Positions 9,281 to 63,221 of a stretch of DNA of 64,000 nt are shown here, in pieces. The notes under the pieces are model-generated. The model searched no databases and was not told the origin of the DNA. It was given only the letters and a program-made list of their open reading frames with translations. Origin of the DNA: Microbacterium suwonense (GTDB lineage: Bacteria > Actinomycetota > Actinomycetes > Actinomycetales > Microbacteriaceae); assembly GCF_030296555.1 (NCBI RefSeq), contig NZ_AP027728.1:2852001-2916000 (forward strand), given 5' to 3'. The translations under genes and the position numbers were made by a program. The number at the start of each line of letters is the position of its first letter. The first letter of the stretch is position 1.

Positions 9281-10477
9281 ATGAAGTTCATTCAGAAACC
9301 CTCCGCGCGTGCTGCGGCAGCGCTGACGACCATGACGGTGCTGTCCTTCGGACTGATGGCCTGCACGCCCTCTTCAGGTGGCCCTGCCAACAAGCCGGAC
9401 GGGCAGGCGGAGCTCGAACTGGGCATCAGCGACGATGGCTACACGCTCGACAAGCTGATCGCCGCGGCGAAGGAGGAAGGGCCGCTGGTCGTCTCCGACA
9501 GCACCGGCAAGATCACCGACATGGCCGACGCGTTCACGGCCAAGTACGGGATCAAGACCACCGGTGTGAAGCAGAAGGCCGGTGAAGCCACTGAGATCGC
9601 CATCCGCGAGGCGTCGGCGAGCAATATCCAGACCGACGTCTTCATCCTCTCCGACGCGCCGGGAGCGCAGCACGAGCTCATCGAGCGCGGTATCGCCTCC
9701 TCCTGGACGCCGCCCGATCTGGCCGGCTCGATCGACCCGGAGTTCCAGGATCCGCTGGTCATCTCCACCGACGTGCTCGTCTGGGGCTACAACACCGAGC
9801 TCTACCCGAACGGGTGCCCGGTCGACAACCTCTGGGCGCTGACGGATGACGACTGGACCGCGCATGTGGTCATGGAGGACCCAACGCTGAAGTCCGCGAT
9901 CCTGTACTGGGTCAACGAGATGTCGGTCAACCACGACGACAAGATGAAGCAGGCTTACGAGGACTACTTCGGCGAGAGCTTCGCCAGCGACGAGAAGACT
10001 GCGTCGGCCGAATGGCTCAAGCGCCTCGCAAAGAACAAGCCGCTGCTGGTGAAGAGCGGAAGCGACTCGGCGGAGTCCGCCGGCGCACCGGGGCAGACTG
10101 AGGGGTTCATGGGACTGCTCAGCACCGCGAAGTTCCGTGAGAACGAGGACAGCGGCTACAAGCTGGGCCTGTGCACGGGCATCGCCCCGTACTCCGGCAT
10201 CGGCTACACGAAGCTCGGTCTGATCGCCAACGGCACCAAGAGCCCGAACGCGGCGAAGCTGTTCCTGCACTACGCGATGACCGCCGAGGGAATCGCGCCG
10301 CAGGTCGAGGACGGCAAGTTCTCGGGCAACAGCGACGTGCCGCCGGCTGCGGACGAGCCCTCCGGCATCCTGGACGTCTGGGATGAGGTCTACATCGCCG
10401 AGCGCGGCATGCTCGACAGCGACTTCGATTCGCTGCCCGAGTGGAGCGACTTCTGGATCACGGCGAACCACTCCTGA
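9281..10477 (+). CDS. Extracellular solute-binding lipoprotein of an Fe3+/sugar-phosphate-type ABC importer
   Basis: A 398-residue lipoprotein. The signal peptide ends in the lipobox LMAC (FGLMACTPSSG, Cys about residue 28). The mature part is a type-II periplasmic-binding fold related to FbpA/AfuA (LDKLIAAAKEEGPLVVSDSTGK, ITDMADAFTAKYGIKT, ISTDVLVWGYNTELYP). A good ribosome-binding site (AAGGAAAGAG) precedes the ATG. In the same structural family, Actinobacillus AfuA binds hexose phosphates rather than iron. The phosphatase genes directly downstream suggest a phosphorylated organic ligand, perhaps an inositol or sugar phosphate. That substrate is an inference from context; iron or phosphonate uptake cannot be excluded. 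Confidence 0.82.
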   Translation: MKFIQKPSARAAAALTTMTVLSFGLMACTPSSGGPANKPDGQAELELGISDDGYTLDKLIAAAKEEGPLVVSDSTGKITDMADAFTAKYGIKTTGVKQKAGEATEIAIREASASNIQTDVFILSDAPGAQHELIERGIASSWTPPDLAGSIDPEFQDPLVISTDVLVWGYNTELYPNGCPVDNLWALTDDDWTAHVVMEDPTLKSAILYWVNEMSVNHDDKMKQAYEDYFGESFASDEKTASAEWLKRLAKNKPLLVKSGSDSAESAGAPGQTEGFMGLLSTAKFRENEDSGYKLGLCTGIAPYSGIGYTKLGLIANGTKSPNAAKLFLHYAMTAEGIAPQVEDGKFSGNSDVPPAADEPSGILDVWDEVYIAERGMLDSDFDSLPEWSDFWITANHS

Positions 10478-10492
10478 CACCGGTGCCGGTGT
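10477..10492 (+). terminator. Hairpin after the binding-protein gene
   Basis: ACACCG-GTGC-CGGTGT begins at the last base of the stop codon. A second imperfect hairpin (GCGGATG...CATCCTCCGC) follows at about 10493-10514. Such stem-loops after binding-protein genes often cause partial termination or protect the upstream mRNA. Confidence 0.4.
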
Positions 10493-10547
10493 GCGGATGG
10501 AGAGCATCCTCCGCGCGCCGGCGCCCGAATCCAAGAACGGATAAGCG

Positions 10548-11396
10548 ATGACCGATGCGGCTCTCGAATCCCGGGCTCTGAGGCGGACTGCCGTCCGCGC
10601 CGCGCTCAGCGTGGCGGACCAGCTGCGCGAGGCGTTCCGTGCCCCCATGCAGCACGACTTCAAGCGGGACGCGCACGACATCGTCACCGTGCACGACAAG
10701 GCGGCCGAGCGCAGCATCACCGCGGTGCTGCTCGATGAGCACCCAGACTCGATGATCGTGGGCGAGGAGGGCGGCGTCAGCGGTTCCGGCCGAGTGCAGT
10801 GGCATATCGACCCGATCGACGGCACCTCCAACTTCGCCCGCGGCCTGGCCTACTGGTGCGTGTCGATCGCCGCCGTCATCGATGACGCGGTCGTCGCCGG
10901 GGTCGTCCTCGACCCGATGACCGGCAACCTGTTCAGTGCCGACGCCGACGGAGCCCTGCTGGGCGACGCCCCGCTGAGCTCCCGTGCCGCTGCGCGCGAG
11001 ATCGACGCGACGCTGATCTCGAGCTTCCCGAACCCGAAGGACACCTGGCTCTTCGGCGAGAGCGCGTACCAGGCGCAGTCGCGCCTGGTCGACGCCTTCC
11101 AGGCCGTGCGCAATCTCGGCAGCGGAGCGCTGAACCTGGTGCACGTGGCCGCCGGATGGGCGGATGCCACGATGGGCTTCTACACGAACTCGTGGGACAT
11201 CTCCGCAGGAGGATTCATCCTGCAGCAGGCCGGCGGCAGCATCCGGGGCCTTGCCGGCGGCGAGAACCGCGAGCCCTTCCACACCTCACCCGACTACTAC
11301 GCGATCGGCGCGGGCGGCGACTATCCCACCCTCTCCGACGTGATGCGGACCTGGTCGTCGCGCTACGACGCGACCAACCCGCCGCCGCGTCCCTGA
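10548..11396 (+). CDS. Inositol-monophosphatase-family phosphatase (copy 1)
   Basis: A 282-residue Mg2+-dependent phosphatase of the IMPase/FBPase/CysQ superfamily. Metal-binding motifs are intact: GEEGG near residue 67, DPIDGTSNFARG near 87-98, and WDISAGGFILQQAGG near 215. It most likely hydrolyses a phosphate monoester on a polyol or sugar. It is 70 bases after the binding-protein gene and 31 bases before the HAD gene. A close paralogue lies at 12213-13045, and both share the unusual stretch KRDA.D.VTVHDK. Two IMPase-like enzymes, a HAD phosphatase and an importer in one unit support a pathway for phosphorylated substrates. Confidence 0.85.
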   Translation: MTDAALESRALRRTAVRAALSVADQLREAFRAPMQHDFKRDAHDIVTVHDKAAERSITAVLLDEHPDSMIVGEEGGVSGSGRVQWHIDPIDGTSNFARGLAYWCVSIAAVIDDAVVAGVVLDPMTGNLFSADADGALLGDAPLSSRAAAREIDATLISSFPNPKDTWLFGESAYQAQSRLVDAFQAVRNLGSGALNLVHVAAGWADATMGFYTNSWDISAGGFILQQAGGSIRGLAGGENREPFHTSPDYYAIGAGGDYPTLSDVMRTWSSRYDATNPPPRP

Positions 11397-11427
11397 CACA
11401 CCACCCACACCGAGGAGAAGAACAAGA

Positions 11428-12216
11428 ATGACGAAACTCATCAGGCCCCGCGGTCTGCTGGTCGACTTCGGCGGCGTCATCGTCGAGACGGCCAACCGCA
11501 CCGGCTGGCAGTCCGAGCTGGCCCAGATCGTGCAGTCGCGACTGACCGAGGCGGGGATCGATCTCCCCGCGCTGACGGAGGACGTGATCGAGAACGACAT
11601 CCGTGAAGGGGCCAAGGCCGACTCGCGCTGGAAGGATGCGATGTCCCGCCCCTTCGCGCCGGCCGAGCTGAAGTACGAGGAGTTCTGGGAAGGGTTCGTG
11701 GCGGGGGACTGGCCGACGGTGGCCCGGGAGTACGTGCGCGAGCACGCCAAGGAGCTGTGTCGCGTGATGGGCGAGATGAAGCAGGAGCGCACCACGCGCG
11801 ACGGGTTCATCGAGGTGCTCGATCTGGCGGACGAGGCATCCATCCCGGTCGTGATCGTCAGCAACACGCTGATGGGACAGGTGCACCGCGACTATCTCAC
11901 CCGCAACGGTCTGACCGATCGCTTCGTGGAGCAGATCTACAGCGACGAGGTACGGGTGCGCAAGCCCAACCCCGAGATGATCCACCTCGGTGCGCGGGCC
12001 ATCGATGAGACCGCGGCGACCTGCTGGTACGTCGGCGACAACTTCGACCGAGACGTGCTGTGCGGTGTTCGCGCCGGGGTCGGAGGCAACATCCTCATGG
12101 AGGCCCGCAGCACCTACGACCTGCCCTATCAGCTCTCCGTGACGGCCGACGCGATCGTCGCCGACCCGCGGGGCCTGCGCGACCTGATGGTCGCCTCGCT
12201 GGAGCGCGTGGCATGA
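11428..12216 (+). CDS. HAD-superfamily hydrolase (YihX-like)
   Basis: A 262-residue haloacid-dehalogenase-fold hydrolase. Motif I is VDFGGVIVET (nucleophile Asp at about residue 12, with Gly in place of the second Asp, as in the YihX/epoxide-hydrolase N-domain branch). Motif II is VIVSNT near residue 146 and motifs III/IV are KPNPEMI and YVGDNFDRDV near 175-210. YihX from E. coli is a glucose-1-phosphatase; a sugar- or polyol-phosphate substrate would suit this operon. A ribosome-binding site (GAGGAGAAG) lies upstream. The stop overlaps the start of the second IMPase-like gene (ATGA at 12213-12216). Confidence 0.82.
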   Translation: MTKLIRPRGLLVDFGGVIVETANRTGWQSELAQIVQSRLTEAGIDLPALTEDVIENDIREGAKADSRWKDAMSRPFAPAELKYEEFWEGFVAGDWPTVAREYVREHAKELCRVMGEMKQERTTRDGFIEVLDLADEASIPVVIVSNTLMGQVHRDYLTRNGLTDRFVEQIYSDEVRVRKPNPEMIHLGARAIDETAATCWYVGDNFDRDVLCGVRAGVGGNILMEARSTYDLPYQLSVTADAIVADPRGLRDLMVASLERVA

Positions 12217-13045
12217 GCAGCGAGTCGGCGACGGCGCAGTCGCGCCGGCTGCGCGCGATCGCCGAGGCGCTGCGCGCTGCGTGCAGGAGCAGCTGCGCGC
12301 GGCGTTCCGCGGGCAGATGTCGATCGATCACAAGCGTGATGCGCGCGATGTGGTCACCGTGCACGACAAGAACGCTGAGAAGGCCATCTCGGCGTACATC
12401 TTCAAGCAGGAGCCCGACTCGCGGATCCTCGGTGAAGAGGGCGGTGCGGTCGGCGACGGTGCGGTGGCCTGGTTCGTGGATCCGATCGACGGCACGAGCA
12501 ACTTCGTCGACGGCATCGCGTTCTGGTGCGTATCGGTCGCCGCGGCCGTGGACGGCGAGGTCGTCGCGGCCGCGATTCTGGATCCGATGGCCGACGATCT
12601 GTTCTCGGCCGACCTGGAGGGCGCGCTGCTGAACGGTGAGCCGCTGCTGTCGACGGCCGCGGCCACCGAGGCGGAGGCCACGCTGATCACCGGGTATCCG
12701 AACGCCCGACAGCTCACCGCGCACGGTGGCGTCGCCCTGACCGACTTCGCCGAGCTGGTGCTGGCGTTCCGGGCTCTGCGCCGCCCCGGCAGCGCGGCGC
12801 TGACTCTGGCTCACGTCGCCGCCGGCTGGGCGGATGCCGCTGCCGGCTTCAACGTGAACCCCTGGGACATCAGTGCCGCCGAGCTGATCGTGAAGAAGGC
12901 GGGCGGCAGCTACATCCCCCTGGCGGTCGGCCAGCACGAGCGCCCGGTGCACTCCTACGACCATCGCGGCTACGTGGCGGTCGGAGGCGGTGCGTCGTAT
13001 CCCACGCTGATGTCCATCGCCCGCGACATCGCCGCACGCAGCTAG
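12213..13045 (+). CDS. Inositol-monophosphatase-family phosphatase (copy 2, frameshifted)
   Basis: A paralogue of the enzyme at 10548-11396, about 277 residues after repair. Motifs GEEGG, DPIDGTSNFVDG and WDISAAELIVKKAGG are intact. The natural start is the ATG at 12213 that overlaps the HAD stop (MSSESATAQ). One G is missing at about 12280-12282: with GCG-GTG the frame runs RAAVQEQLRAAFRGQ, which aligns with copy 1. Without repair only a form starting at the GTG 12281 can be made, lacking the first helix. Last gene of the importer operon; a long palindrome follows. Confidence 0.82.
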
Positions 13046-13109
13046 CAGTCCCCCTGCGCGGCCACCCGGTTCGGTCCGTCCGCTACCTCCCCTGCCTCCC
13101 CCGCAGAAT

Positions 13110-13174
13110 CCGCTCCCGTCGCGAAAACCGTCGCCCCGAACCAGGGAAAGCGACGGAAAGTGCGACGGGAGCGG
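13110..13174. repeat. Intergenic palindrome before the thiolase gene
   Basis: Arms of 25 bases at 13110-13134 and 13150-13174. Each has a 13-bp block (CCGCTCCCGTCGC) and a 7-bp block (CCGTCGC) that pair perfectly, separated by a 5-base unpaired bulge. The right arm ends 22 bases before the thiolase ATG at 13197. It could fold into a long hairpin in mRNA. Confidence 0.8.
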
Positions 13175-13196
13175 AGTGCACGGGCATGATGGAGGC

Positions 13197-14375
13197 ATGA
13201 GCAGCGAAGCCGTGATCGTCGATGTCGTCCGCACCCCGGTCGGACGAGGCAAGCCCGGAGGATCCCTGTCGGGGGTGCATCCGGTGGACCTCGCGGCGGG
13301 GGTGCTGCAGGCGATCCTGGAGCGCAGCGGACTGGAATCCGGGCAGATCGACGACGTGATGCTGGGCTGCGTCAGCCAGGTCGGCGACCAGGCGATGAAC
13401 ATCGCCCGCCAGGCCGTGCTCGCCGCCGGCTTCGACGAGCGCATCCCGGGCACCACGATCGACCGGCAGTGCGGCTCCAGCCAGCAGGCCGTCCATTTCG
13501 CCGCGGCAGGCATCGCCGCAGGCGAAAACGACATCGTCATCGTCGGCGGGGTGGAGTCGATGAGCCGGGTGCCGCTGGGCTCTTCGGCATCCGGTGGTTC
13601 GCCGATGTCGCCGCGACTGCGCTCTCGCTACCCGGACGGACTCGTGAACCAGGGCGTCAGTGCCGAGCTCATCGCGCAGCGATGGGGCCTGGGCCGCGAG
13701 GCGCTGGACTCCTTCGCGGCCGAGTCGCATGCGCGGGCGGCCGCGGCCTGGCGCGACGGATTCTTCGACCGCACGGTCGTCGCGGTGCCCGAGGCTCCGG
13801 ATGCCGCAACCGACGAGACCGTGCGGGAGGGGACGACGGTCGAGAAGCTCGCCGGTCTTGCCGCCTCCTTCCGCACCGATGCGCTCGCAGAGCGATTTCC
13901 TGACCTCGAATGGAGCATCACGCCGGGCAACTCGTCCCCGCTCACCGACGGGGCCTCCGCCGCGCTGATGATGAGCGCCGACCGTGCGGAGCAGCTCGGG
14001 CTCACCCCGCGGGCGCGCTTCCGTGCCTTCGACGTGATCGGGGATGATCCCTTCTTCATGCTGACCGGTCCCATCCCCGCCACCCGCCGCGCGCTCGAGC
14101 GCGCCGGCCTCGGCATCGACGACCTCGACGCCTATGAGGTCAACGAGGCGTTCGCCTCGGTGCCGTTGGCGTGGGCGGCAGAACTCGGAGCCGACCCCGC
14201 GAAGCTGAACCCGCGTGGCGGTGCGATTGCCCTCGGCCATGCGCTCGGCTCCTCGGGCACCCGTCTGCTGGGCACGCTGCTCGACCACCTCGAGGCCACC
14301 GGCGGCCGACTGGGGCTGCAGACCATGTGCGAGGGCGGCGGAATGGCGAACGCCCTGGTGCTCGAGCGGCTCTGA
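13197..14375 (+). CDS. Acetyl-CoA acyltransferase (thiolase)
   Basis: A 392-residue thiolase that cleaves or forms beta-ketoacyl-CoA. The nucleophilic Cys lies in DRQCGSSQQAVHFAA (about residue 89). The C-terminal motifs are NEAFASVPLAW, NPRGGAIALGHALGSSGTR (catalytic His) and MCEGGGMANALVLE (second Cys). The ATG at 13197 (MSSEAVIVDVVRTPVG) gives the canonical N-terminus; an in-frame GTG at 13176 is possible. The gene stands alone between two long palindromes. Degradative steroid/fatty-acid thiolase (FadA type) is likely; the exact substrate is unknown. Confidence 0.9.
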   Translation: MSSEAVIVDVVRTPVGRGKPGGSLSGVHPVDLAAGVLQAILERSGLESGQIDDVMLGCVSQVGDQAMNIARQAVLAAGFDERIPGTTIDRQCGSSQQAVHFAAAGIAAGENDIVIVGGVESMSRVPLGSSASGGSPMSPRLRSRYPDGLVNQGVSAELIAQRWGLGREALDSFAAESHARAAAAWRDGFFDRTVVAVPEAPDAATDETVREGTTVEKLAGLAASFRTDALAERFPDLEWSITPGNSSPLTDGASAALMMSADRAEQLGLTPRARFRAFDVIGDDPFFMLTGPIPATRRALERAGLGIDDLDAYEVNEAFASVPLAWAAELGADPAKLNPRGGAIALGHALGSSGTRLLGTLLDHLEATGGRLGLQTMCEGGGMANALVLERL

Positions 14376-14388
14376 CCCCCTCCTCTGG

Positions 14389-14449
14389 CTTCATGTAGCG
14401 CAAATTGCTCCCGTCAGCCTCTGATTCGAGCAATTTGCGCTACACGAAG
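14389..14449. repeat. Inverted repeat, family 1, copy A
   Basis: Arms of 22 bases at 14389-14410 and 14428-14449 with one mismatch; core TGTAGCGCAAATTGCTC and its complement. It lies between the convergent thiolase and nuclease-like genes. The TAG in the right arm (minus strand) is the stop codon of the nuclease-like gene. Copies B (15501-15563) and C (21923-21979) share the core. Confidence 0.9.
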
Positions 14450-15441
14450 ATCGGGTGGGCGAGGGCGTCGGCGACTCGCCGGACCAGTTCCTCGGGGCGC
14501 TTCAGCAGTGGTGAGGTGATCTCGACGACCGTCCACCCGGCGGCTCGCAGCGCTGCGAGCCGCTCGACATCGGCGGCCCATTGCTCGCCGTGCAGCATTC
14601 CCAGGTACTCCACCGCGACACGCTGATCCGGGTACGCCATGTCGACGCAGCCGAGGAACCTGCCGCCGGAGTCGAACACATCGACGTTGAGCTCTGGTTC
14701 GGGCAGGTGGGCCTCGAGAAGGATGCAGCGCACGAGCGACTCGCGCGGCGACCACGAGTCCTCGCGGATCAGCGAGAGCGCCTCGCGCAGTCGAGCTGCT
14801 CCATACCGTCGGCCCGCCTCCAGCGCCGCCTCGAGATCTGCTCTGGTCGCGAGGGGTGCTCGGCCGGCATCCGGTCTGCCATAGCCCTCCCGCCATTCGC
14901 GGCAGAAGAAGTCGCCGAGCGCGACCAGATCGTGAACCGAGAGCCCGCCCAGTGATACCCAGGTGGTCGCCGGGGATGCCACGCGCAGCCCGATGTGCTC
15001 TGTGACGGTGGTGAGGCTCGAGTAGGTGCGATGCCCGACGATGCCGGATGCGCGAGGGAAGGGCAGGTATCCGAGCACACTGACGTGCAGCGCCAGCGCA
15101 TCTCCTTCGGCGAGGGCCCCCGATTCCGTGAACTCGATCGGCAGGGGTGCTCCCCAGATCGACGCGGCAGTCTGATGGCTGAAGAAGTGCCCCGTGTGCA
15201 GCCTGGCTGCGTAGGTTCGTGCCCGTTCGATGCGGAAACGGCGCTGCCGCTCGTAGGGGTTCTCGATCCCGGCGATCGCGACGGCTGCGGGCTCCACGGC
15301 GTTGGACTGTGCGCGCACGCCGTGGAAGGGAGCCTGCAGATCGTGCCCGCGCAATCGGCCATGGCCGATTCCGTGCGCTCGGGCGACCCGCACCGAGAAG
15401 ATCTCTCCGAATCGATCAGCCAGGTTCTCGTCGCCGTTCAT
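14440..15441 (-). CDS. PD-(D/E)XK nuclease-like protein with AbiEi-like N-terminus
   Basis: A 333-residue protein of a type common in Microbacteriaceae. The C-terminal 105 residues look like a DUF559/Vsr-like PD-(D/E)XK nuclease fold: SPRESLVR (Glu 234), LNVDVF, LGCVDMAY (Asp 267), VAVEYLG (Glu 278), then H284 and the D-x2-R of DVERLAALRAAGW. The N-terminal region (about 15-130) resembles AbiEi-type winged-helix antitoxin domains (HGRLRGHDLQAPFHGVRA). No toxin partner lies next to it. Both ends of the gene abut copies of the same long inverted repeat, and its stop codon is inside one of them. DNA-cleaving activity is inferred from the residue pattern, not known. Confidence 0.7.
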   Translation of the reverse strand: MNGDENLADRFGEIFSVRVARAHGIGHGRLRGHDLQAPFHGVRAQSNAVEPAAVAIAGIENPYERQRRFRIERARTYAARLHTGHFFSHQTAASIWGAPLPIEFTESGALAEGDALALHVSVLGYLPFPRASGIVGHRTYSSLTTVTEHIGLRVASPATTWVSLGGLSVHDLVALGDFFCREWREGYGRPDAGRAPLATRADLEAALEAGRRYGAARLREALSLIREDSWSPRESLVRCILLEAHLPEPELNVDVFDSGGRFLGCVDMAYPDQRVAVEYLGMLHGEQWAADVERLAALRAAGWTVVEITSPLLKRPEELVRRVADALAHPIFV

Positions 15442-15500
15442 GTGCTCACTGTTCCACGTGCAGCGGCCCTCGCGCGGAAGTTATCCACAGGCCAGATCAT

Positions 15501-15563
15501 CGTTCGTGTAGCGCAAATTGCTCCACTTCCCCCGGAATCGGAGCAATTTGCGCTACACGAACG
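15501..15563. repeat. Inverted repeat, family 1, copy B
   Basis: A perfect 24-bp inverted repeat, arms at 15501-15524 and 15540-15563 with a 15-base loop. It has the same core (TGTAGCGCAAATTGCTC) as copy A. It sits 60 bases upstream of the nuclease-like ATG, in the divergent gap before the amylase-pullulanase gene, so simple termination is not its obvious role. Confidence 0.92.
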
Positions 15564-15579
15564 AGGGGAGGGGAGCTTC

Positions 15580-15593
15580 TGGAAACGGTTGCT
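15580..15593. promoter_or_regulatory. LacI-family operator-like site 1
   Basis: TGGAAACGGTTGCT matches the LacI/CcpA-type consensus TGNAANCGNTTNCA at all but the last position. It lies 66 bases upstream of a second, perfect site before the amylase-pullulanase gene. Confidence 0.5.
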
Positions 15594-15645
15594 GAATGAC
15601 GGGAGAGAATCTGAGGTGGGGCGCGGGGAATCGCGGGAATATTAC

Positions 15646-15659
15646 TGGAAGCGCTTGCA
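15646..15659. promoter_or_regulatory. LacI-family operator-like site 2
   Basis: TGGAAGCGCTTGCA matches TGNAANCGNTTNCA exactly and is nearly palindromic. It overlaps the proposed -35 box of the amylase-pullulanase promoter, as expected for repression by a maltose/starch-responsive LacI-type regulator. No such regulator is in the window. Confidence 0.7.
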
Positions 15660-15684
15660 ATCAAGTCGCATCCCCTGCTAGCTT
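15655..15684 (+). promoter_or_regulatory. Candidate promoter of the amylase-pullulanase gene
   Basis: TTGCAA (15655-15660) and TAGCTT (15679-15684) with an 18-base spacer. The start codon is 54 bases downstream with GGAG at 15730-15733 as ribosome-binding site. The rest of 15442-15738 holds only the inverted repeat and the two LacI-type sites. Confidence 0.5.
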
Positions 15685-15738
15685 CACAGGAATCGCCTGG
15701 GCGCACAGCCGTGCCCGCCGTCCCTCCCTGGAGCATCC

Positions 15739-21922
<6,184 letters not shown>

Positions 21923-21930
<8 letters not shown>

Positions 21931-21979
21931 CGCAAGTTGCTCCGATCGGCACCGATTCGGAGCAACTTGCGCTACATGA
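21923..21979. repeat. Inverted repeat, family 1, copy C
   Basis: A perfect 21-bp inverted repeat, arms at 21923-21943 and 21959-21979. The core is TGTAGCGCAAGTTGCTCC: compared with copies A and B one A-T pair is a G-C pair, changed in both arms, so pairing is kept. The left arm supplies the likely TAG stop of the amylase-pullulanase gene. Confidence 0.92.
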
Positions 21980-22069
21980 GACCTGAGATAGTAGGTGTCC
22001 CTAGTAATTCGATTGGGGGCCGACTACCATGGTCACTGTGCCAACGACGGCGCAGAGGAGTGTCACACA

Positions 22070-23579
<1,510 letters not shown>

Positions 23580-23580
<1 letters not shown>

Positions 23581-24767
23581 TGACCATGATCGACAGCACT
23601 GTCACCGCAGAGGAGCGCGAGGCGATCCTCGAAGCCGTGCGCGACTTCACCGAGGCCGAGCTCACCCCGTTCGCGTCCGAACGGGACGAGAAGCACCTCT
23701 TCCCACGCGAGACGCTGAACCGGGCGGGCGAGCTGGGGCTCGGCGGCATCTACGTCCGCGAGGAGTTCGGCGGCACGGGCCTGGACCGCGTCGACACCGT
23801 GGCGATCTTCGAGGAGCTCGCCAAGGGAGATCCCGCGGTCGCCGCGTACATCTCCATCCACAACATGGTCGCGTGGATGATTGACAGCTACGGCACCGAT
23901 GCGCAGCGTGCGCAGTGGCTGCCGTCACTCACCGCGATGTCCGAGTTCGGCGGCTACTGCCTCACCGAGCCCGGCGCGGGGTCGGATGCCGCGAACATCG
24001 CCACCAGCGCCGTGCGCGACGGCGATGACTACCTGCTCACCGGCGTGAAGCAGTTCATCTCCGGCGCGGGAGAGGCGGGTGTCTACGTCGTCATGGCGCG
24101 CACCGGCGGGCCGGGCTCCGGCGCGAAGGGGATCAGCGCGTTCCTCGTGCCCGGCGATGCGGCGGGACTGAGCTTCGGCGCCCCCGAGAAGAAGATGGGA
24201 TGGCACGCTCAGCCCACGCGCCAGGTGATCTTCGACGGCGTGCGGGTACCGGCATCCGCCCTGCTCGGCGAGGAGGGCCGCGGCTTCGCGATCGCGATGT
24301 CCGGGCTCAACGGCGGGCGGCTGAACATCGCGGCCTGCTCGCTGGGCGGTGCGCAGTGGGCGCTGGAGAAGGCGGTGCAGTACGTGCAGGAGCGGGTCGC
24401 CTTCGGCGAGCCGCTCGCCGAGATGCAGTCGGTGCTGTTCCAGGTCGCCGACATGCGCACCAAGCTGCAGGCCGCGCGCCTGATGGTGCGCGATGGTGCG
24501 CAGGCGGTCGACGAGCACGCTCCGGATGCCACGATGCGCTGCGCCATGGCCAAGAGGTTCGCCACGGATGCCGGGTTCGAGGTCGCCAACCGGGCCCTTC
24601 AGCTGCACGGCGGATATGGGTACCTTCAGGACTACGGTATCGAGAAGGTCGTGCGTGACCTGCGCGTGCATCAGATCCTGGAAGGGACGAACGAGATCAT
24701 GCGACTCATCGTCGGCCGCGAGATGCTGCGGCCCGCGGGCTCGGCGTCGATGAGGGAGGCATCATGA
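23580..24767 (+). CDS. Acyl-CoA dehydrogenase (probable isobutyryl-CoA dehydrogenase)
   Basis: A 395-residue FAD enzyme of the acyl-CoA dehydrogenase family. Signatures: YCLTEPGAGSDAAN (near 125), the substrate/FAD region GMHA-like KKMGWHAQPTRQV, QSVLFQVADMRTKLQAARLM, and the C-terminal LHGGYGYLQDYGIEKVVRDLRVHQILEGTNEIMR block, split here only by line length in the source. Within an mmsA/mmsB unit it should oxidise isobutyryl-CoA to methacrylyl-CoA. Start ATG 23580 overlaps the mmsA stop by one base, with GGGGAGGGG as ribosome-binding site. The stop overlaps mmsB. Electrons would go to the ETF encoded at 28993-30738. Confidence 0.9.
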
Positions 24768-25650
24768 CCCGCATCGCGTTCCTCGGACTGGGACACATGG
24801 GCCTGCCCATGGCCGTGAACCTCGTCGAGGCCGGCCACGAAGTGCACGGCTTCGACCTCGTGCCCGCCGCTGTCGACGCGGCGCGCACCGCCGGCATCCC
24901 GGTGGCGGCCAGCGGAGCGGATGCCGTGGCCGATGCGGATGTCGTGATCACGATGTTCCCCGCCGGGAAGCATGTCATCGCGGCCTATCAGGACGAGCTG
25001 CTGGCTGCCGCGAGACCGGGCACATTGTTCATCGAGTCGTCGACCATCGCCGTGGACGAGGCGCGCAGTGCGCATCAGCTGGCCGTCGACGCGGGGCACC
25101 GCAACATCGACGCCCCCGTCTCGGGCGGCGTGGTGGGTGCCGAGGCCGGAACGCTGGCGTTCATGGTCGGCGGGGCCGAGGACGACTTCGCGGCGGCGCT
25201 GCCGCTGCTGGAAGTGATGGGCAAGCGCATCGTGCACTGCGGTGGACCCGGTCTCGGTCAGGCCGCGAAGGTGTGCAACAACATGATTCTCGGCATCTCG
25301 CAGATCGCCGTCGCCGAGGCGTTCGTGCTGGCTGAGCGACTCGGGCTGGAGCATCAGGCGATGTACGACGTCGTGTCGCAGGCGTCCGGTCAGTGCTGGG
25401 CGCTCACCACCAACTGCCCTGTGCCGGGGCCGGTGCCCGCCAGCCCCGCGAACCGCGATTACCAGCCCGGCTTCGCCGGCGCCCTGATGGCGAAGGACCT
25501 CGGGCTCGCGTTGCAGGCGATCGAGCAGACGTCGACGGATGCCAGGATGGGCCGTCTCGCGCAGGAGCTTTACGCCGCCTTCGCCGATGGCGAGGAGCGG
25601 GGCGCGACTTCTCCGGCATCATCACCGACATCCGCGCCGGCACCGTCTGA
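24764..25650 (+). CDS. mmsB: 3-hydroxyisobutyrate dehydrogenase (frameshifted)
   Basis: About 295 residues after repair. An NAD-dependent beta-hydroxyacid dehydrogenase of valine catabolism. It shows FLGLGHMGLPMAVNL (residues 5-19, NAD-binding plus family signature), APVSGGVVGAEAGTLAFMVGG near 120, and GQAAKVCNNMILG near 168 with the catalytic Lys. The frame is lost near 25601-25606: one added C gives GEERGRDFSGIITDIRAGTV and the stop at 25648-25650, the usual C-terminus. ATGA overlap couples it to the acyl-CoA dehydrogenase gene. Confidence 0.9.
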
Positions 25651-25654
25651 CAAG

Positions 25655-25721
25655 CCCGTCTATTTGGCGCTCGTGCACGGCTTCTGCGGCGTGTCGCGTG
25701 CACGAGCGCCAAATAGACGGG
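25655..25721. repeat. Perfect 24-bp intergenic palindrome
   Basis: Arms at 25655-25678 and 25698-25721 pair without mismatch; loop of 19 bases. Core TATTTGGCGCTCGTGCAC. It lies 4 bases after the mmsB stop and before the enoyl-CoA hydratase gene in the same direction, so it may end the first transcript. Confidence 0.92.
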
Positions 25722-25797
25722 TGGTCGGTGTGGCCCGGTGAGCTCGGGCACCTGGAATACTGGAGGGGTCGCAGTGCCGCGGCTGAGGGAGTGACAC

Positions 25798-26573
25798 ATG
25801 GCTGATTACGAGACGATCCTTGTCGAGCAGCGAGGACGAGTGGGGTGGATCACCCTGAACCGGCCGGAGGCGCTCAACGCGCTGAACGGCCAGGTCTCCC
25901 AGGAGGTCGCCGCCGCGGCATCCGCCTTCGATTCCGACGAGAGCATCGGCGCGATCGTCGTCACCGGCTCCGAGAAGGCCTTCGCCGCCGGGGCAGACAT
26001 CAAGGAGATGGAGTCCAAGACCGGTGCCGAGATGCTCGACACCGACCACTTCGGGGCCTGGACGCGCTTCGCCGCCGTGCGCACCCCCGTCATCGCCGCC
26101 GTCGCCGGCTACGCGCTGGGCGGCGGATGCGAGCTGGCGATGATGTGCGACATCATCCTCGCCGCCGACAGTGCCACCTTCGGCCAGCCCGAGATCAACC
26201 TCGGCGTCATCCCCGGCATGGGCGGCACGCAGCGGCTCATCCGCGCCGTCGGCTACTACAAGGCTGCGGAGCTCGTGCTGTCCGGCCGGCTGATCAAGGC
26301 CGACGAGGCCGAGCGCATCGGACTCGTGTCGCGTGTGGTGCCGGCATCCGATCTGCTCGACGAGGCGACGAAGCTGTCCGAGACCATCGCGTCGAAGTCG
26401 CTGCCGTCGCTGTACGCCGCGAAGGCGACGCTGGATGCCGCCATGGAGACCACCCTCGAGGCCGGGCTCACCGTCGAGAAGCGCGCGTTCGCCGCCCTGT
26501 TCGACACCGCCGACCAGAAGGAGGGGATGGCTGCCTTCCGCGAGAAGCGCCCCCTCACTTCCAGCACAGGTGA
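25798..26573 (+). CDS. Enoyl-CoA hydratase/isomerase family protein (frameshifted)
   Basis: About 258 residues after repair. A crotonase-fold enzyme with [11 protein letters not shown] (oxyanion-hole region, near 65), [17 protein letters not shown] (near 103) and the two catalytic-type acidic positions in [17 protein letters not shown] (near 131-147). It probably hydrates enoyl-CoA such as methacrylyl-CoA in the valine pathway or beta-oxidation. The frame breaks in a run of five C at 26550-26554; one added C gives EKRPPHFQHR and the stop at 26571-26573. GAGGGAG lies 7 bases before the ATG. Confidence 0.9.
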
Positions 26574-27022
26574 TCGCGGTGACGACCGACACGCTTCCGG
26601 AGGACACCGACCTGACACTGTCGGAGGCCGATCGTCGAGAACTCGTGGAGTGGACCATCGCCTGCGCCGAGCGGATGCTGCCGCTGTTCTTCGCGGAACG
26701 GCCCGACGATGTGCGCCCGCGGGAGGCGCTGGATGCCGCGCGGGCGTTCCTGCGCGGGGAGATGACCATCGAAGCCGTGCGCGAGAAGGCGTTCGCCAGC
26801 CATGCCGCCGCCCGCGAGGCAGGAGACCCCGGAGCGCTGGCCGCGGCGCGGGTGTGCGGGCAGGCCGCAGCCGTGGCGCACATGGCCGGCCACGCACGGC
26901 AGGTGCCGCGGTACACGGCCAAGGCGTTCCCGGGCGATCGCTCCCGCCGTGACGAGGAGCTCGCCTGGCAGCGGATGAACGTACCCGACCGCTTCGACCG
27001 CTACGTGTACGACGGGGATTGA
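26570..27022 (+). CDS. Imm-5-like putative immunity-family protein
   Basis: About 150 residues, alpha-helical and Ala-rich, resembling the family annotated as putative immunity protein (Imm-5-like): [46 protein letters not shown] and YTAKAF. The GTG at 26570 overlaps the enoyl-CoA hydratase stop (GTGA); a GTG at 26579 is the alternative. No toxin or secretion gene lies beside it, so a true immunity role is doubtful and the protein may be a stand-alone housekeeping member. It ends 15 bases before a tandem palindromic array. Confidence 0.5.
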
Positions 27023-63151: not shown

Positions 63152-63221
63152 CCGCGTTCGAATCGCTTAAATCGCTCCATTCCGGGAGGTTTTCGAGCCA
63201 TTTGCGCGATTCGAACGGCGG
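63152..63221. repeat. Palindrome between galK and galE, related to family 1
   Basis: A 12-bp perfect pair (CGTTCGAATCGC at 63155-63166; complement at 63206-63217) extends outward and inward to about 26 bases with a few mismatches. The inner part (AATCGCTTAAATCGCTCC) matches the family 1 arm at 12 of 18 positions. It lies between two genes in the same direction. Confidence 0.75.

What the first reader, a model, noticed from the sequence alone, without database searches (positions are those of the whole stretch)
14389..15563. Nuclease-like gene bracketed by identical long inverted repeats
The sequence shows a 333-residue protein with a PD-(D/E)XK-like pattern (E234, D267, E278) flanked on both sides by copies of one inverted repeat (core TGTAGCGCAAATTGCTC). 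Further copies occur at 21923 and, diverged, at 63152. REP-associated transposases (RAYTs, HUH type) are known to sit between palindromes they mobilise; a PD-(D/E)XK/AbiEi-like protein in that position is, to my knowledge, not described. It could copy, cut or be regulated by the hairpins.
Basis: partly seen in the sequence, partly recalled or inferred. Interest (0 to 1): 0.75.

Follow-up and report, generated by a model that had tools for sequence, protein, structure and literature searches.

The report
Nuclease gene bracketed by dispersing palindromes
A widespread but unexplained family of bacterial DNA-cutting proteins often sits between two copies of its own private palindrome, a sequence that also spreads elsewhere in the same genome, which looks like an independently evolved counterpart of the REP/RAYT system.

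Summary
Confirmed and extended. The 333-residue protein (AbiEi-like N-terminal part plus a Vsr/homing-endonuclease-like nuclease domain with a conserved active site) lies between two matched ~60-nt imperfect palindromes; the downstream one contains its stop codon. I found this palindrome 9 times in the 3.16-Mb genome and in none of 294 other genomes of the genus. The one full-length paralogue found (38% identical) is flanked by two palindromes of similar size but different sequence, present in 25 copies. In Microbacterium 62/91 loci examined have a palindrome upstream and 62/91 downstream (control windows 22/723). The pair matches within a locus (arms 82% versus 47% between loci) although orthologous loci diverge: concerted evolution. 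The association recurs in other Actinomycetes families (21/38 loci; controls 0/116). Copies move: a 131-nt palindrome-bearing block, 98.5% identical at two distant sites of one genome, is missing from one of these sites in a relative. The pattern parallels REP/RAYT systems (private palindromes, vertical inheritance, target switching, orphan relics), but the enzyme is not an HUH transposase. That the nuclease itself moves the palindromes is inferred, not shown. The "diverged copy at 63152" is another palindrome type, probably a relic of an ancestral target.

The parts
14440..15441 (-). Nuclease gene, 333 aa: residues ~1-226 AbiEi-like, ~231-332 Vsr/EDxHD-type PD-(D/E)XK nuclease (E234, D267, E278, H284, D291)
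   Evidence: ORF; conservation; model and fold matches; Pfam DUF559 below cut-off
14389..14449 (.). Downstream palindrome (D), 61 nt, overlaps the 3' end and stop codon of the nuclease gene
15500..15564 (.). Upstream palindrome (U), 65 nt, 58 nt before the ATG
21922..21980 (.). Dispersed family-1 palindrome copy
25655..25721 (.). Family-2 palindrome (CCCGTCTATTTGGCGC type), cognate of the paralogue at G000:C1:1183810-1184733
63157..63215 (.). 59-nt TTCGAATCGC-type palindrome: type that flanks most syntenic nucleases in other species; here without a cognate nuclease found (probable relic)
13176..14375 (+). Thiolase (neighbour on the downstream side of the nuclease; 7 other sampled loci share homologous sequence on this side directly, 13 loci in one linked group)
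15739..18096 (+). Alpha-amylase/pullulanase-type gene (neighbour, not part of the system)

Best explanation
A REPtron-like partnership built on an unrelated enzyme. The chromosomal, vertically inherited nuclease gene is bracketed by two copies of a ~60-nt palindrome that is the DNA partner of its own protein. I infer that the AbiEi-like part binds the outer arms (two half-sites at a fixed distance, or the extruded hairpin) and the Vsr/EDxHD-type domain nicks or cuts at or beside the palindrome. Repair or replication of the cut end then copies the palindrome, sometimes with tens of adjacent bases, into new, mostly intergenic sites and homogenises existing copies, so palindromes and protein drift together. 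When the gene is lost or changes its target, old palindromes stay as relics. Shown here: architecture, private matching, concerted evolution, dispersal, presence/absence of a palindrome block between relatives, nuclease fold and conserved active site. Inferred: binding, nicking, and that the nuclease rather than another enzyme drives the copying.
Against: No binding or cleavage data. Four genomes with no homologue found (all candidates scored) hold 7, 1, 2 and 2 palindromes of the TTCGAATCGCG type, and two others (G253 with 25, G083 with 20) have only a nuclease of another palindrome type. Palindrome integrity was not visibly worse without a cognate nuclease. 29 of 91 loci lack a detectable palindrome on a given side and 17 of 91 on both; 17 of 38 loci outside the genus fail the flank-similarity test. 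Two palindromes flank a transporter gene in G149/G209. To my knowledge a PD-(D/E)XK nuclease alone has no strand-joining activity, so host repair must be invoked. The G149/G209 indel could be a loss.
Confidence: 0.55

Rival explanations
1. Operator and regulon: the AbiEi-like part is a repressor; the upstream palindrome is its own operator, the downstream one and the dispersed copies are further regulated or decoy sites, and the nuclease domain has another or lost role.
For: AbiEi-like fold and AbiEi profile match of a relative; U palindrome lies 58 nt before the ATG; AbiEi proteins are recalled to bind inverted repeats of their own promoter.
Against: Of 28 copies in the window's genome classified by crude gene calls (9 of family 1, 19 of the 25 of family 2), 6 lie between convergent genes, 3 inside ORFs, 5 between divergent and 14 between tandem genes. 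The motif changes wholesale between syntenic homologues, unlike a regulon. Palindrome blocks copy to new places. Nuclease residues are conserved.
Confidence: 0.15
2. The palindromes are moved by something else (another transposase or host repair alone); the nuclease is their resident controller, for example cutting extruded cruciforms or limiting copy number, and keeps its own flanking copies for regulation.
For: Palindromes occur without a detectable nuclease or without the cognate one; a cutter could equally drive concerted evolution through gene conversion.
Against: In the window's genome no other gene is bracketed within 5 kb by two copies of either family; elsewhere this was not checked systematically, and one bracketed transporter was seen. 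TTCGAATCGCG palindromes (flanking copies included) are more frequent where a close homologue of the window's protein is present: 12/26 against 29/269 genomes, 3.8 against 0.43 copies, p 2.6e-5 for presence. REP literature describes the same orphan pattern after RAYT loss (passages).
Confidence: 0.15
3. Homing-type element: the nuclease cuts alleles without the insert and the whole palindrome-gene-palindrome unit homes.
Against: Many of the genes sit in homologous surroundings; palindromes, not near-identical gene copies, are dispersed; few relatives on plasmids (5 of 72,556 records) or phages (1 of 50,697).
Confidence: 0.05
4. RNA-level role: the palindromes act in the transcript (stability, termination or a hairpin RNA bound by the protein).
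For: The hairpin overlaps the stop codon and folds strongly.
Against: Dispersed copies near unrelated genes in all arrangements, no run of four or more T in the 12 bases printed on either side of the 28 copies examined, span concentrated at 57-63 nt, no Rfam match at gathering thresholds in 10000-27000.
Confidence: 0.06
5. Chance or insertion hotspot: palindromes of many kinds happen to land beside these genes.
For: Intergenic regions collect repeats; one transporter gene is also bracketed.
Against: Controls 22/723, 1/380 and 0/116; private matching per paralogue and per species.
Confidence: 0.02

Closest known systems
REP/RAYT (TnpA-REP) systems, REPtrons
   Same: Single-copy vertically inherited gene flanked by palindromes that are dispersed, extragenic and specific to it; more than one family per genome; orthologous genes with changed palindromes (orthoswitch); orphan palindromes after gene loss (passages read).
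   Different: Enzyme is not HUH/Y1 but AbiEi-like + PD-(D/E)XK; palindromes ~60 nt with arms of about 20-25 nt in the window's genome, rather than 20-40 bp (abstract opening); copies up to tens in the patterns counted rather than many hundreds; dispersed copies in the window's genome are single, not doublets.
Vsr mismatch endonuclease and the EDxHD homing endonuclease I-Bth0305I (EDxHD label recalled)
   Different: Different N-terminal part; no intron context seen; flanked by palindromes.
AbiEi antitoxin (type IV toxin-antitoxin AbiE)
   Different: No AbiEii toxin beside the window gene (neighbours are thiolase and amylase); fused to a nuclease.
DUF559 / REase_MTES_1575 domain proteins
   Same: C-terminal domain lies near these Pfam families; MTES_1575 was described as a Vsr-type REase (PMC3710099 passage).
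   Different: No palindrome partner found described for them in the searches made.
REP-like palindromes without a transposase (CGTC REPs; untagged repeats of M. tuberculosis and others, named in PMC3733652, passages read)
   Same: Dispersed palindromes for which no RAYT partner is known.
   Different: Here a protein partner is proposed; whether it applies to those repeats was not tested.

Membership tests
REP/RAYT system | Encoded protein is an HUH (Y1) tyrosine transposase | tested here: not met
   Pfam scan at E<=1 gives only DUF559 and MTES_1575, both below cut-off; model matches PD-(D/E)XK and AbiEi folds.
REP/RAYT system | Gene flanked on both sides by the palindrome it is paired with | tested here: met
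REP/RAYT system | Palindrome dispersed, mostly extragenic, as non-autonomous copies | tested here: met
   9 and 25 copies in the window's genome; 25 of 28 classified copies not inside an ORF by crude gene calls
REP/RAYT system | Gene vertically inherited, not itself multiplied | tested here: met
   Flank-linked groups of up to 18 loci, largest ones 18, 13, 13, 11 and 11; 1-7 homologues per positive genome, at most 7 candidates scored; rare on plasmids and phages. No tree comparison was made.
REP/RAYT system | Protein processes its palindrome in vitro | not testable with these tools
   needs purified protein
Type IV toxin-antitoxin AbiE | Adjacent AbiEii nucleotidyltransferase toxin | tested here: not met
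   Neighbours in the window are thiolase and alpha-amylase; other loci not checked
Type IV toxin-antitoxin AbiE | AbiEi fold of the antitoxin | tested here: met
Vsr / EDxHD nuclease superfamily (PD-(D/E)XK) | Nuclease fold with conserved acidic/His active site | tested here: met
Vsr / EDxHD nuclease superfamily (PD-(D/E)XK) | DNA cleavage activity | not testable with these tools
   needs assay
Pfam DUF559 (PF04480) | Score above gathering cut-off | tested here: inconclusive
   17.8 bits against 20.6 for the window protein; above the cut-off in 4 of the 7 relatives scanned
Homing endonuclease element | Whole gene-bearing unit present/absent at an allelic site | not tested
   no allele-level empty site for the whole unit was sought

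The most novel reading that the evidence does not exclude
A new, class-wide kind of palindrome-mobilising system in Actinomycetes: a solitary AbiEi-PD-(D/E)XK (Vsr/homing-endonuclease-like) nuclease recognises its private ~60-nt palindrome and drives its copying round the chromosome, convergently with HUH RAYTs. It would give a first function to many solitary DUF559/AbiEi 'endonuclease domain' proteins and a partner for RAYT-less REP-like repeats.
Probability: 0.5. Interest if true: 0.92.

Novelty: categorically new. Interest (0 to 1): 0.85.

Why it matters
It links a common protein family of unknown function to a private DNA partner in many families of a bacterial class, and suggests that REP-type dispersal evolved a second time with an unrelated enzyme. 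Because species carry their own protein/palindrome pairs, it offers a ready panel for testing recognition specificity, target switching and the origin of short genomic palindromes, including those for which no transposase is known. If the protein cuts its palindrome, it is also a source of natural long-target nucleases.

Tried and rejected
Chance and insertion hotspot: rejected by controls. Intrinsic terminators: no run of four or more T in the 12 bases printed after the 28 copies listed. Rfam families: none at gathering thresholds in 10000-27000. AbiE toxin-antitoxin pair: no toxin neighbour in the window. Mobile gene: relatives on 5 of 72,556 plasmid records, all under 60% identity, and 1 of 50,697 phage records. 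PDB sequence relatives: none for the A1 profile at E<=1. NCBIfam: no family at E<=1. Foldseek alone: the only match under E 0.001 is a Toxoplasma mitoribosome chain, I-Bth0305I comes at E 0.073; VIA-align then ranks I-Bth0305I first.

Tests that went against or did not help: inner-arm pairing of TTCGAATCGCG copies does not clearly separate genomes with the cognate nuclease (means 8.4, 8.7, 8.1 of 11 in G252, G228, G074) from those where no cognate one was seen (9.4 G102, 8.4 G253, 7.3 G040, 7.4 G186), on 44 of the copies listed, 59-nt ones only. No protein sub-domain stands out as specificity determinant: Spearman with palindrome distance from 0.33 (residues 8-46) to 0.49 (nuclease domain), whole protein 0.57. 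The first, register-bound version of the concerted-evolution test showed no effect in group g3 (0.42 against 0.45 and 0.48), probably because weak elements there were mislocated; g3 was not put into the repeat with free register. In one search the small groups g1b, g4 and g7 gave 225, 1661 and 2525 of 5000 permutations, so only g1 and g2 are clear; in g1 only 6 of 11 D elements are at least as close to their own U as to every orthologous D.

Full report
OBSERVATION. The window is G000:C1:2852001-2916000 of a 3.16-Mb one-contig genome. I take the genus to be Microbacterium, because two sister genomes have contigs of exactly the length of named Microbacterium records (3,681,524 bases, Microbacterium sp. 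8M; 3,475,315 bases, Microbacterium sp. XT11). The gene at 14440-15441 (-) encodes 333 aa. A 61-nt palindrome (14389-14449) covers its last codons and stop; a 65-nt one (15500-15564) ends 58 nt before the start of the gene. Both carry the core TGTAGCGCAAATTGCTC; six arms occur in the window where 0.07 are expected. Among the 19 arm matches in the genome and the stretches fetched round them I found nine hairpins with the same geometry, 16-nt core arms starting 33 nt apart; a stricter whole-hairpin pattern counts eight.

A SECOND, INDEPENDENT INSTANCE IN THE SAME GENOME. The only full-length paralogue found at E<=1 (38% identity, G000:1183810-1184733; a third match is a 62-residue N-terminal stretch) is also flanked by two palindromes of the same build, 25-nt arms with a 17-nt centre, but of unrelated sequence (CCCGTCTATATGGCGC...). 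That sequence gives 54 arm matches (control 1), which pair into 25 complete hairpins plus 4 single arms. Of these 25, the only two closer than 5 kb are those around the paralogue; for family 1 the only two closer than 6 kb are those around the window gene. A family-2 copy lies in the window at 25655-25721.

GENUS-WIDE TEST. 265 of 295 genomes have a homologue at E<=1e-10 (at most 7 candidates per genome were scored there, so absences are soft). I examined 91 loci: 2 of G000, the 29 others returned, and 60 that I picked from the rows listed, leaving out rows near contig ends and most of the weakest. With one fixed rule (palindrome score >=11, span 44-76 nt), 62 of 91 have one upstream, 62 of 91 downstream, 50 both, 17 neither (12 of these 17 are among the 21 loci L098-L118, which are mostly the weaker homologues); control windows of 250 nt in the same loci give 22 of 723. 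At score >=18: 21 and 25 of 91 against 2 of 723. Spans cluster at 57-63 nt (84 of 124). Upstream and downstream elements match: arm identity 0.82 within a locus against 0.47 between loci; the own partner ranks first for 34 of 50; 2000 permutations reach at most 0.54. A test without a palindrome rule, direct similarity of the two flanks, exceeds the 99% level of 273 same-locus controls in 63 of 91. A scan of named genomes found 309 relatives and kept the best 80, 77 testable: 56 exceed the same level, against 1 of 380 control pairs; these species overlap with the first sample, so this is a repeat rather than an independent test.

CONCERTED EVOLUTION. Loci fall into groups linked by homologous flanks; the window's gene is in one of 13 loci, 7 of which match its own downstream (thiolase) side directly. 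At these positions the palindromes differ strongly between species yet remain matched within each locus: 0.888 against 0.674 (U-U) and 0.695 (D-D) for 11 loci, 0.857 against 0.607 and 0.591 for 10 loci of a second group, 0 of 5000 permutations in each; smaller groups are inconclusive. Palindrome and protein distance correlate (Mantel r 0.64, 0 of 2000). Family 1 is private: 0 of 294 other genomes hold it at up to 3 mismatches. The window's species seems to have switched target: 9 of the 12 other loci of its group have TTCGAATCGC-type palindromes, and G000 keeps a few of that type (2 exact hairpins, and the 63157-63215 element) without a nuclease flanked by them.

BEYOND THE GENUS. A profile search of 246 genomes of the class finds homologues in 123 at E<=1e-8 (57 of 95 genera; at most 9 candidates per genome scored). 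Of 39 loci outside the genus (20 of the 22 returned, two on short contigs left out, and 19 that I picked) 22 pass the flank-similarity level, 0 of 116 controls; two of the 39 are the same gene, so 21 of 38. The passing loci carry 13 family labels, the window's own family among them, with unrelated palindromes (for example GTTGATCATGGAGAA in G345, whose closest named proteins are from Jiangella; GAGCGTGCAGG in G297). These two are again dispersed and restricted: the first in 8 of 25 genomes tested, all in one genus (8 of its 11), up to 26 copies; the second four times in G297, two of them flanking the nuclease, once in G499, and in none of 20 others.

MOBILITY. In G345 a 131-nt block holding one palindrome is 98.5% identical at 3.77 and 6.24 Mb in unrelated flanks, and an 80-nt block is repeated 263 nt apart. 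In relative G330 the flanks of the 6.24-Mb site align through (90 and 94% identity) with about 20 nt in place of about 133 nt. Between the close relatives G149 and G209 a 95-nt difference removes or adds one palindrome plus spacer; direction unknown. In G209 the orthologue of one G149 nuclease has lost large parts of the gene.

READING. The features parallel REPtrons as described in the passages that I read: flanking and dispersed palindromes, single-copy gene, species congruence (PMC3116915), co-evolution of enzyme and repeat (PMC8266576), orthologues with different repeats, orphan repeats after gene loss (PMC3686654). The enzyme is not an HUH protein, so this is not a RAYT system; it works like one, as far as genomes can show. 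The mechanism proposed (recognition by the AbiEi-like part, nicking by the Vsr-like domain, repair-driven copying) is inference.

AGAINST. Palindromes without the nuclease exist: G040 7, G002 1, G127 2, G211 2, with all candidates scored and no homologue found at E<=1e-5; G253 (25) and G083 (20) have only a nuclease with another palindrome. The TTCGAATCGCG type is found in 12 of 26 genomes with a close (E<=1.3e-114) homologue of the window's protein and 29 of 269 others (p 2.6e-5; 3.8 against 0.43 copies per genome, flanking copies included): enriched, not exclusive. One pair of palindromes flanks a CitMHS/ArsB-type transporter. None of this decides between mobiliser, controller and repressor. 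Eight full-text searches on this link gave no paper describing it: three returned nothing, the other five listings I judged by title and abstract opening. Most subscription journals and preprints are not in that library.

Noticed in passing
63157-63215: Exact 59-nt TTCGAATCGC-type palindrome, the type that flanks most syntenic nucleases in other species; looks like a relic of an earlier target in this genome.
   Followed up: partly
25655-25721: Family-2 palindrome whose cognate nuclease is elsewhere in the genome; it lies within the 3' end of a dehydrogenase-like ORF (by eye) and shows up in ORFs of both strands as a repeated peptide (VYLALVHG/A...RAPNRR).
   Followed up: partly
L253:1381-2695 and L254:1315-2630: In G149 and G209 two TTCGAATCGCG palindromes 1.25 kb apart flank a CitMHS/ArsB-type transporter gene (Pfam run on L253 only), not a nuclease.
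   Followed up: partly
L022, L027, L028, L029, L033, L037 (beside the nuclease): A different short hairpin (AAGACCCCCGCCGA, 6-nt loop CCCGAT/ATCGGG, TCGGCGGGGGTCTT) or close variants recurs near several nuclease loci; possibly a common terminator-type repeat.
   Followed up: no
L235: In G209 the orthologue of a G149 nuclease has internal deletions that remove most of the nuclease domain: natural loss in a close relative.
   Followed up: partly
G000:C1:2779206-2779373 (L011): 62-residue match to the N-terminal part only, in an 83-aa frame: a possible gene remnant.
   Followed up: no
L273:1983-2113: The copied 131-nt block in G345 carries, beside the main palindrome, a second inverted repeat (AAGGATTCGACC / GGTCGGATCCTT); several relatives have hits to this part alone, so it may be a second repeat family.
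   Followed up: no
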